A DNA stretch of 64,000 bases. It comes from Mycolicibacterium phocaicum (GTDB lineage: Bacteria; Actinomycetota; Actinomycetes; Mycobacteriales; Mycobacteriaceae). Position 1 is the stretch's first letter. Every line of letters begins with the position of its first letter. A program made the translations under genes and the position numbers. Of the stretch, positions 7,998 through 9,936 are shown one piece after another. The DNA is taken from assembly GCF_010731115.1 (NCBI RefSeq), contig NZ_AP022616.1, positions 2,046,001-2,110,000 of the forward strand, given 5' to 3'. A model generated the notes under the pieces. That model searched no databases and was not told where the DNA came from. It saw only the letters and a list, made by a program, of their open reading frames with translations.

Positions 7998-9837
7998 ACT
8001 TCTTGGCCTTGTCTCCGGCAGCATCAGTTGATAATGCGGCCACAAAGGCCTCCTGCGGAACTTCCACCCGGCCAATGGTTTTCATGCGCTTCTTGCCCTC
8101 CTTCTGCTTCTCGAGCAGCTTCCGCTTACGGGTGATGTCACCGCCGTAGCACTTGGAGAGCACGTCCTTGCGGATGGCCCGGATGTTCTCGCGCGCAATG
8201 ATTCTCGAGCCGATGGCAGCCTGCACGGGCACCTCGAACTGCTGACGCGGGATCAGCTCCTTGAGCTTGGTCGTCATCTTGTTGCCGTACGCCGACGCGC
8301 CGTCCTTGTGCACGATGGCGCTGAACGCGTCGACGGCCTCGCCCTGCAGCAGGATGTCGACCTTCACCAGATCGGCTTCCTGCTCGCCGGCCTCTTCGTA
8401 ATCCAGCGACGCGTAGCCACGGGTGCGTGACTTCAGCGAGTCGAAGAAGTCGAAGATGATCTCGCCGAGCGGCATGATGTACCGCAATTCGACACGTTCC
8501 GGCGACAGGTAATCCATGCCCTGCAACTCGCCGCGGCGGGACTGGCACAGCTCCATGATGGTGCCGATGAATTCGCTGGGCGCGATCACCGTCGTCTTCA
8601 CGATGGGCTCATGGACGGCGCGGACCTTGCCCTCGGGCCAGATCGACGGGTTGGTGACGATCAGCTCGGTGTTGTCTTCCTTCTCCACCCGGTACACCAC
8701 GTTGGGCGAGGTCGAGATCAGGTCCAGGTTGAACTCGCGCTCGAGGCGCTCGCGGGTGATCTCCATGTGGAGCAGACCCAAGAAGCCACAACGGAAGCCA
8801 AAGCCAAGGGCCACAGACGTTTCCGGCTCGTAGGTCAGCGCGGCGTCGTTGAGCTGAAGCTTGTCGAGCGCCTCGCGCAGGTTGGGATAGTCCGAGCCGT
8901 CGACCGGGTACAGGCCCGAGTAGACCATCGGCTTGGGTTCGCGGTAGCCCGTCAGCGCTTCGGTGGCGCCCTTGCGGGCCGTCGTCACCGTGTCACCGAC
9001 CTTGGACTGGCGGACGTCCTTCACACCGGTGATGAGGTAACCCACCTCGCCGACGCCCAATCCCTCCGACGCCTTGGGCTCCGGCGACACGATGCCGACC
9101 TCGAGCAGTTCGTGGGTGGCACCGGTGGACATCATGGCGATCTTCTCGCGCGGGACGATCTTGCCGTCCACGACGCGGACGTAGGTGACCACGCCGCGGT
9201 AGATGTCGTAGACCGAGTCGAAGATCATCGCGCGGGTGGGGGCATCCGGGTCGCCGGTCGGCGCGGGGACCAGCCGGACCACCTCGTCGAGCAGTTCCTT
9301 CACACCTGCACCGGTCTTGCCCGATACCCGCAACACGTCGGTCGGCTCGCAGCCGATGATGTGCGCGATCTCACCCGCGTAGCGGTCCGGGTCGGCGGCC
9401 GGCAGGTCGATCTTGTTGAGCACCGGGATGATGGTCAATCCGCGGTCGAGCGCCAGGTACAGGTTGGCCAGGGTCTGCGCCTCGATGCCCTGCGCGGCGT
9501 CGACCAGCAGCACGGCACCCTCACAGGCCTCCAGCGCGCGCGACACCTCGTAGGTGAAATCAACATGCCCAGGCGTGTCAATTAAATGCAGGACGAACTG
9601 CTCGCCGTTGACTTCCCACGGCAGGCGCACGTTCTGCGCCTTGATCGTGATACCGCGCTCACGCTCGATGTCCATGCGGTCCAGGTACTGCGCGCGCATC
9701 GACCGGTCGTCGACGACGCCGGTGAGCTGCAGCATGCGGTCGGCCAGGGTGGACTTGCCGTGGTCGATATGGGCGATGATGCAGAAGTTCCGAATCTGCG
9801 CCGGCGCAGTGAACGTCTTGTCGGCGAAACTGCTGAT
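7996..9837 (-). CDS. lepA: Elongation factor 4 (LepA) with a likely near-cognate ATC start
   Basis: LepA is a ribosome-bound translational GTPase that back-translocates stalled ribosomes or assists 30S assembly. The G1 motif AHIDHGKST, the switch region RGITIKAQ, DTPGHVDF and NKIDLP are all present, followed by domains II-V and the LepA-specific C-terminus ending KEGKKRMKTIGRVEVPQEAF. The first ATG in frame (9735) lies after the P-loop and cannot start a working protein. Upstream the frame reads TGA stop (9873-9871), then only TAC GCG CAG ACC CAT CGT CAC CAG GAG ATT CCC before ATC AGC AGT TTC GCC. AGGAG sits exactly six bases before the ATC at 9837, giving M-SSFADKTFTAP. I therefore place the start there (613 aa). 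Alternatives are ATT at 9843, which is too close to AGGAG, or a one-base indel joining a GTG at 9874. Confidence 0.88.
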   Translation of the reverse strand: MSSFADKTFTAPAQIRNFCIIAHIDHGKSTLADRMLQLTGVVDDRSMRAQYLDRMDIERERGITIKAQNVRLPWEVNGEQFVLHLIDTPGHVDFTYEVSRALEACEGAVLLVDAAQGIEAQTLANLYLALDRGLTIIPVLNKIDLPAADPDRYAGEIAHIIGCEPTDVLRVSGKTGAGVKELLDEVVRLVPAPTGDPDAPTRAMIFDSVYDIYRGVVTYVRVVDGKIVPREKIAMMSTGATHELLEVGIVSPEPKASEGLGVGEVGYLITGVKDVRQSKVGDTVTTARKGATEALTGYREPKPMVYSGLYPVDGSDYPNLREALDKLQLNDAALTYEPETSVALGFGFRCGFLGLLHMEITRERLEREFNLDLISTSPNVVYRVEKEDNTELIVTNPSIWPEGKVRAVHEPIVKTTVIAPSEFIGTIMELCQSRRGELQGMDYLSPERVELRYIMPLGEIIFDFFDSLKSRTRGYASLDYEEAGEQEADLVKVDILLQGEAVDAFSAIVHKDGASAYGNKMTTKLKELIPRQQFEVPVQAAIGSRIIARENIRAIRKDVLSKCYGGDITRKRKLLEKQKEGKKRMKTIGRVEVPQEAFVAALSTDAAGDKAKK

Positions 9838-9936
9838 GGGAATCTCCTGGTGACGATGGGTCTGCGCGTATCACGCGCGGCTACCAGGGTATCTAGCCAG
9901 GACCCCGGCGACTAAATCGCGGCCCGGAAACTCCCC

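What the first reader, a model, noticed from the sequence alone, without database searches (positions are those of the whole stretch)
9735..9873. lepA appears to start at ATC (or ATT), not ATG/GTG/TTG
The conserved N-terminus including the P-loop (SSFADKTFTAP...AHIDHGKST) is encoded upstream of the first ATG in frame (9735), and an in-frame TGA stands at 9871-9873. Between them no ATG, GTG or TTG exists. A clear AGGAG lies six bases before ATC at 9837. M. tuberculosis LepA, as I recall it, contains the same residues QEIPISSFADKTF, so the AGGAG-ATTCCC-ATC string may be conserved as a translation signal that annotators have read as protein. Near-cognate starts are best known in infC, where IF3 feedback uses them. 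LepA, a translation factor, could be controlled in the same way.
Basis: partly seen in the sequence, partly recalled or inferred. Interest (0 to 1): 0.72.

Follow-up and report, generated by a model that had tools for sequence, protein, structure and literature searches.

The report
lepA starts at an ATC codon
The gene for the ribosome factor LepA in this mycobacterium almost certainly begins at the unusual start codon ATC instead of ATG, a feature kept across nearly all sampled mycobacteria and shared with the gene for initiation factor IF3, which suggests that LepA output depends on how strictly the cell polices start codons.

Summary
Observation confirmed; ATC as start is strongly supported by comparison. 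lepA (- strand) has no ATG/GTG/TTG between an in-frame TGA (9873-9871) and its P-loop; AGGAG stands six bases before ATC (9837-9835). In 194 Mycobacterium genomes with a readable N-terminus the homologous codon is ATC 180, ATT 4, ATA 4, GTG 6. AGGAG precedes 188 of 188 Ile cases, at spacing 5, 6 or 7, so the upstream frame is not kept; upstream DNA is unconserved at all three codon positions. In 80 chosen genomes of 30 other genera I read ATT/ATC in 53 (20 of these open to doubt) and GTG/TTG/ATG in 27; in 9 no start-like codon lies between an in-frame stop and this codon. infC, a known ATC-start gene, has ATC in 30 of 30 Mycobacterium loci. Nineteen of 120 listed database proteins start two codons upstream, where 30 of 188 species have no start-like codon. 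IF3 control of lepA is inferred, untested. AUU starts for lepA were proposed for two other bacteria in 2007; this is a new, order-wide member of a known kind.

The parts
7996..9837 (-). lepA (elongation factor 4) coding sequence as proposed here, 613 codons from ATC, first residue presumably fMet
   Evidence: TIGR01393 980.3 bits, profile positions 2-595
9835..9837 (-). ATC, proposed start codon (codon -21 counted from the A of AHIDHGKST)
   Evidence: ATC/ATT/ATA in 188 of 194 Mycobacterium genomes, GTG in 6; GTG/TTG/ATG at this codon or the next one upstream in 26 of 80 genomes of other genera
9844..9848 (-). AGGAG Shine-Dalgarno, 6 bases before ATC
   Evidence: present in 188 of 188 Mycobacterium Ile-start genomes, spacing 6 (163), 7 (23), 5 (2)
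9838..9843 (-). spacer ATTCCC; its ATT (9843-9841) is the start used by some database proteins
   Evidence: 1.36-2.00 bits per position (aligned on the SD); MPISSF termini in 19 of 120 listed proteins
9871..9873 (-). in-frame TGA that closes the LepA frame upstream
9886..9891 (-). TACCCT, likely promoter -10 element of lepA (inferred; leader then about 40 nt)
   Evidence: GATA[CT]NNT-type box within 70 nt before the SD in 148 of 188 genomes, at variable distance; transcription start not measured
9733..9735 (-). first in-frame ATG, inside the G domain; not the start
   Evidence: product from here begins at profile position 23, without the P-loop

Best explanation
lepA is translated from the near-cognate codon AUC at 9837-9835. 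The 30S subunit is placed by the AGGAG Shine-Dalgarno 6 bases upstream on a short leader, and the initiator fMet-tRNA reads AUC with two correct base pairs and a third-position mismatch, giving fMet-SSFADKTF... Supported by comparison: the site, its SD, the absence of other starts, and replacement by GTG/TTG/ATG at or next to the same codon in sister lineages. Inferred: the residue inserted and the leader length. Because IF3 rejects AUC-type starts, lepA output should be low and should rise when free IF3 is scarce, together with infC, which uses a similar start layout in the same genome (inferred). The likely use is to keep LepA scarce and tie it to the ratio of IF3 to 30S subunits (inferred; the confidence below is for the ATC start, not for this last step).
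For: No canonical start between TGA and P-loop. Codon -21 is ATC 180, ATT 4, ATA 4, GTG 6 of 194 Mycobacterium genomes. AGGAG in 188 of 188 Ile cases; spacings of 5, 6 and 7 shift the upstream frame, so upstream codons are not a conserved part of the protein. Conservation begins at the SD: 0.19, 0.19 and 0.18 bits for the three upstream frame positions, 1.84 across the SD, 1.60 over spacer plus start, 1.87/1.92/1.57 in the next 20 codons. In 9 of the 80 genomes of other genera (L127, L136, L139, L310, L311, L312, L316, L345, L353) no ATG, GTG, TTG, CTG, ATT, ATC or ATA lies between an in-frame stop and codon -21; in five of these the stop TAG overlaps the SD. The 80 genomes: ATT 30, ATC 23, GTG 17, TTG 6, ATG 4. 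At least 14 changes Ile/canonical on the LepA tree, 0 Ile among 66 tips outside the clade. Positive control: infC, ATC in Streptomyces (passages of PMC5472188), has GGAG-N5-ATC in 30 of 30 Mycobacterium loci and ATC (26) or ATT (1) in 27 of 27 readable genomes with canonical lepA.
Against: No protein or ribosome data seen. 106 of 188 Mycobacterium Ile-start genomes do have some in-frame ATG/GTG/TTG before the P-loop, so in those an extension is not excluded by their own sequence. Among the 53 Ile readings in other genera, 18 have a GTG at codon -24 overlapping the SD and 2 (L120, L329) a TTG or GTG 2-3 codons upstream of the Ile codon, so 33 of 80 are free of this doubt. SD strength does not differ between Ile-start and canonical-start genomes (-8.02 vs -7.91 kcal/mol; independent pairs median p = 1), so no compensation is seen. 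Frequent GTG/TTG starts outside Mycobacterium mean that the weak start is not indispensable. IF3 control is unmeasured.
Confidence: 0.92

Rival explanations
1. Translation starts at ATT 9843-9841 (protein MPISSF...), as in a number of database proteins.
For: 19 of 120 listed database proteins begin at this codon; codon -23 is ATT in 149 and ATC in 9 of 188 genomes.
Against: ATT follows AGGAG directly, leaving no spacer. Codon -23 is TTT, AAC, ACT, TTC, AAT, GAT or AAA in 30 of 188 Mycobacterium genomes, while codon -21 is ATH in all 188. In other genera canonical starts stand at codon -21 (15 of 27), -22 (11 of 27) or -25 (1), none at -23.
Confidence: 0.04
2. A canonical upstream start gives an N-terminal extension; in this genome it is reached by frameshift or stop readthrough, or the TGA is an error.
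For: Most listed database proteins are annotated with extensions: 30 different distances from first residue to P-loop among the 116 of 120 that hold the P-loop. 106 of 188 genomes have an in-frame canonical codon. A GTG at 9874 opens an overlapping frame.
Against: Upstream sequence has about 0.19 bits per position and no codon-position signal; spacing differences shift the frame next to the SD; 65 of 188 genomes have no canonical start before the P-loop.
Confidence: 0.02
3. The start is ATG 9735 and the gene makes a truncated or dead protein.
For: It is the first ATG in the open frame; 4 of 120 listed proteins are annotated so (579 aa: P0023, P0031, P0050, P0088).
Against: It would remove the P-loop, yet the codons after ATC are strongly conserved (1.87/1.92/1.57 bits, 188 genomes).
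Confidence: 0.01
4. ATC is the start but carries no regulation: the weak codon merely lowers output, or is tolerated because LepA is little needed. (A rival to the IF3 part only.)
For: Start class differs in 9 independent contrasts on supported branches (13 on all branches), whereas infC keeps ATC/ATT in 57 of 57 readable genomes. No SD compensation. E. coli lepA deletion has no obvious growth defect (abstract of PMC4245954, listing).
Against: ATC/ATT/ATA is kept in 188 of 194 Mycobacterium genomes, with ATG in none, though ATC to ATG is one base away and AUG is generally favoured (abstract of PMC5622118).
Confidence: 0.45

Closest known systems
infC (IF3) with AUU/AUC start, autoregulated by IF3
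   Same: Near-cognate Ile codon start, strong SD, translation factor gene; in this genome infC reads GGGAGG-CCCC-ATCAGC (L361), lepA AGGAG-ATTCCC-ATCAGC
   Different: Product is LepA, so IF3 control would be cross-control; the lepA start is GTG/TTG/ATG in some genera while infC keeps ATC/ATT in the 57 readable genomes looked at
lepA of Borrelia burgdorferi and Bacillus licheniformis, AUU start proposed by Margus et al. 2007 (PMC1780047, passages)
   Same: Same gene; full length only if AUU is the start
   Different: Two species of other phyla, inferred genome by genome; no mycobacterial lepA is mentioned in the passages seen. Here a whole order, mostly AUC in Mycobacterium, with conservation and replacement evidence
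sigR of Streptomyces, GTC start repressed by IF3 (PMC5472188, passages)
   Same: Actinobacterial gene with a non-canonical start, misannotated to an upstream canonical codon
   Different: GTC, sigma factor, IF3 effect shown by experiment; here no experiment
pcnB of E. coli, AUU start that limits expression (passages of PMC1780047 and PMC4245954)
   Same: AUU start as expression limiter
   Different: Not a translation factor

Membership tests
LepA / elongation factor 4 (TIGR01393) | Full-length match over the curated cut-off incl. G domain P-loop and LepA C-terminal domain | tested here: met
   980.3 bits against 533.9 cut-off, positions 2-595; PF06421 LepA_C present
Genes with near-cognate (AUU/AUC/AUA) start codons, infC type | No ATG/GTG/TTG available for a full-length product | tested here: met
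   Window; 65 of 188 Mycobacterium Ile-start genomes and 14 of 53 Ile-start genomes of other genera; in the remainder a canonical codon lies somewhere upstream or the frame runs off the fetched stretch
Genes with near-cognate (AUU/AUC/AUA) start codons, infC type | Strong SD at proper spacing before the Ile codon | tested here: met
   AGGAG 5-7 bases before in 188 of 188
Genes with near-cognate (AUU/AUC/AUA) start codons, infC type | Same codon is a canonical start in relatives | tested here: met
   GTG at codon -21 in 6 of 194 Mycobacterium genomes; canonical at -21 in 15 and at -22 in 11 of 80 others
Genes with near-cognate (AUU/AUC/AUA) start codons, infC type | Initiation shown by N-terminal peptide or initiating-ribosome data | not testable with these tools
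IF3-repressed genes | Expression changes with IF3 level or fidelity alleles, dependent on the start codon | not testable with these tools
   none
IF3 autoregulation (infC itself) | Product is IF3 | tested here: not met
   Product is LepA
Leaderless mycobacterial genes | Start codon at the 5' end of the transcript, no SD | tested here: not met
   SD present in 188 of 188 genomes; transcription start itself not measured
Programmed frameshift genes | Conserved overlapping upstream frame and shift site | tested here: not met
   Upstream DNA unconserved, about 0.19 bits at each frame position

The most novel reading that the evidence does not exclude
In the Mycobacteriales lepA joined infC in a small set of translation genes whose AUC/AUU starts make them readouts of IF3 activity: when free IF3 is titrated by surplus or poorly matured 30S subunits, LepA and IF3 synthesis rise together, and LepA, implicated in 30S maturation and initiation, restores the balance. 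LepA would then be an output of a start-codon-fidelity sensor kept nearly throughout the genus Mycobacterium and lost several times elsewhere.
Probability: 0.3. Interest if true: 0.7.

Novelty: new member of a known kind. Interest (0 to 1): 0.52.

Why it matters
Few near-cognate starts in bacteria are characterised (so PMC5472188, passages). An order in which a near-universal translation factor keeps an Ile-codon start, with repeated natural switches to GTG/TTG/ATG, is a ready-made test of what such starts are for. The role of LepA is still debated; a start layout shared with infC points to IF3 and the 30S subunit as a possible regulator. Practically, LepA N-termini are annotated inconsistently (30 different distances to the P-loop among 116 listed database proteins) and could be corrected.

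Tried and rejected
Chance occurrence of the motif: AGGAG-N6-ATC alone is not significant in the window, and GGAG-N4-8-ATCAGC is not enriched in the genome (63 against 55 for the reversed pattern), so the motif alone cannot find further such genes; besides lepA and infC I did not follow the other 61 places.

RNA structure at the start: fold of 9888-9790 no better than shuffles (z -0.46); no Rfam family at gathering threshold in 9600-10300.

Literature: in the listings of ten searches and the passages opened I saw no description of an ATC/ATT start of mycobacterial lepA. Only open-licence PMC papers are held, and supplementary tables (for instance those of PMC9094748) could not be read. PMC9094748 cites Gvozdjak and Samanta 2020 for AUC/AUU/AUA starts (passage); from memory that is a survey of genes preferring non-AUG starts; I did not see it and it may list lepA. 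on that name listed unrelated papers.

Rows left out or assigned by hand: of 198 Mycobacterium genomes one (G015) was not fetched and three loci (L275, L278, L297) hold no N-terminus, leaving 194. Of the 141 non-Mycobacterium genomes I read 80: the 20 best-scoring ones returned as loci and 60 picked by hand to cover the genera, so 53 of 80 is not a random-sample frequency. L120 and L329 were assigned ATT/ATC by SD spacing although a TTG or GTG lies 2-3 codons further upstream. In 18 of the 53 Ile readings (genera g4, g7, g9, g11, g17, g19, g23, g30) a GTG at codon -24 overlaps the SD; I took ATT because SD spacing fits it and relatives such as L037 and L317 lack that GTG. If those 20 were counted as canonical, 33 of 80 would be Ile and the number of changes on the tree would differ. 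The tree uses one protein and FastTree; about half of the Mycobacterium genomes, incl. the six with GTG, are not in it because only their 5' end was fetched. For infC, 30 of 31 genomes matched (one of them below the family cut-off), 29 of 30 matched, 27 readable. Those 30 were chosen from the 33 genomes with canonical lepA. The first script misread minus-strand loci and was replaced; one search stopped with an error in its last print line, after the counts used here.

Full report
What is there. The window lies in a complete 5.85-Mb genome. lepA runs on the - strand. Searches confirm each coordinate of the finding: TGA at 9873-9871, AGGAG at 9848-9844, ATC at 9837-9835, first in-frame ATG at 9735, no ATG, GTG or TTG between TGA and that ATG. 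The protein from ATC matches TIGR01393 (lepA) from position 2 to the end; the protein from ATG 9735 starts at position 23 and lacks the P-loop.

Is it chance or error? The motif alone is not remarkable. Two close relatives (L004, L017) show the same closed frame. I examined 197 of 198 Mycobacterium genomes drawn evenly by the tool (and seven loci); 194 have a readable N-terminus. Counting codons back from the A of AHIDHGKST, the codon at -21 is ATC in 180, ATT in 4, ATA in 4 and GTG in 6. AGGAG precedes all 188 Ile cases, with spacing 6 in 163, 7 in 23 and 5 in 2. In 65 of the 188 no ATG/GTG/TTG occurs in frame between the stop and the P-loop; in 17 the frame runs off the fetched stretch; 106 have some canonical codon in frame, the nearest upstream one at scattered distances from -29 to -148; two genomes (L118, L241) have one between codon -21 and the P-loop.

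Where does coding begin? Conservation rises at the Shine-Dalgarno: mean 0.19 bits per position from -75 to -10 before the SD end, 1.84 across the SD, 1.60 over spacer and start, and 1.87, 1.92 and 1.57 bits for codon positions 1, 2, 3 of the following 20 codons; the upstream stretch shows 0.19, 0.19 and 0.18 bits for the three frame positions. A GATA[CT]NNT-type box, probably the -10 element, lies at varying distances before the SD in 148 of 188 genomes, and the distances are not multiples of three. The 5-, 6- and 7-base spacings put the upstream codons in different frames. An N-terminal extension is thus not conserved coding sequence.

ATC or ATT? It abuts the SD. Codon -21 is ATC, ATT or ATA in all 188. 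Four listed database proteins start at the -21 position, and four at the internal ATG.

Other genera. I read 80 genomes of 30 further genera of the same GTDB family (20 best-scoring, 60 chosen by hand). Start: ATT 30, ATC 23, GTG 17, TTG 6, ATG 4. The 27 canonical starts stand at codon -21 in 15, at -22 in 11 and at -25 in 1. Of the 53 Ile readings, 20 are open to doubt because a GTG or TTG lies 2-3 codons upstream, in 18 of them overlapping the SD; 33 are not. In nine genomes (L127, L136, L139, L310, L311, L312, L316, L345, L353) none of ATG, GTG, TTG, CTG, ATT, ATC, ATA lies between an in-frame stop and codon -21; in L127, L139, L311, L312 and L353 the stop TAG overlaps the SD. Several genera hold both kinds: g6 has 5 ATC and 4 GTG, g16 has 2 GTG, 1 ATC and 1 ATT, g20 one ATC and one GTG. 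On a LepA tree built without the N-terminus (234 tips) at least 14 changes between Ile and canonical starts are needed; the 66 tips outside the clade, among them Pseudonocardiales with GTG at codon -21, have no Ile start. One gain near the base of the clade and repeated return to GTG/TTG/ATG is the simplest reading, on a single-protein tree. The six GTG genomes of Mycobacterium read GTG CCA AGT TTT GCC; their size suggests the abscessus-chelonae group, an inference since they are unnamed.

Positive control. infC has ATC in Streptomyces and ATT in E. coli (passages of PMC5472188). In 30 of 30 Mycobacterium loci it reads GGAG-N5-ATC (14 of the 30 have no ATG/GTG/TTG within 40 codons upstream; L389 is below the family cut-off), and in 27 of 27 readable genomes whose lepA is canonical it starts at ATC (26) or ATT (1) (29 loci, two unreadable). 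Thus the method recovers a known case, the two genes share the layout, and lepA switches without infC.

Mechanism. Supported by comparison: the site of initiation and its SD. Inferred: fMet as first residue and a short leader. From the literature: IF3 represses non-canonical starts (PMC5472188 passages) and tolerates only Watson-Crick pairs at the first two bases (abstract of PMC10158994, listing). Hence lepA should be IF3-sensitive. LepA affects initiation in E. coli (title and passages of PMC4245954) and is implicated in 30S assembly (abstract of PMC12787274, listing), which makes an IF3/30S-linked control reasonable, but nothing here measures it. Against a strong constraint: canonical starts are frequent outside Mycobacterium, and SD strength does not differ between classes.

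What is known. Margus et al. 2007 proposed AUU for lepA of Borrelia burgdorferi and Bacillus licheniformis (passages). Near-cognate starts are documented for infC and pcnB and, as GTC, for sigR. Database records already place near-cognate starts on some mycobacterial lepA genes (inferred from MPISSF and MSSF/MSTF termini), inconsistently. The paper searches listed under Tried and rejected showed no description of the mycobacterial case. I therefore file it as a new, order-wide member of a known kind.

Noticed in passing
9938-10552 (+): PemK/MazF-like ORF (PF02452) divergent from lepA; about 100 bases separate its start from the lepA ATC, so the two leaders and promoters share that gap.
   Followed up: partly
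9838-9843 (-): The ATTCCC spacer between SD and ATC is more conserved (1.36-2.00 bits) than spacing alone requires; reason unknown. infC has CCCC before its ATC (L361).
   Followed up: partly
L038 (Tsukamurella spumae), L039 (Gordonia hydrophobica), L123, L134, L356: The SD overlaps a GTG (AGGAGTGA) 3 codons before the ATT start, a codon that annotation programs may choose.
   Followed up: partly
G265 and G293: lepA of two genomes of genus code g3 (grouped with Corynebacterium in the tree) has one in-frame stop (TAG, TAA) inside the match: pseudogene, assembly error or a match past the true end.
   Followed up: no
G008 contig C346: lepA of this draft genome is matched in two overlapping pieces, which suggests a frame break in the middle of the gene, probably assembly.
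   Followed up: no
7133-7939 (+), 10666-11394 (-), 11411-11941 (-): Neighbours: NnrU-like protein, GNAT acetyltransferase, CBS-domain protein.
   Followed up: no
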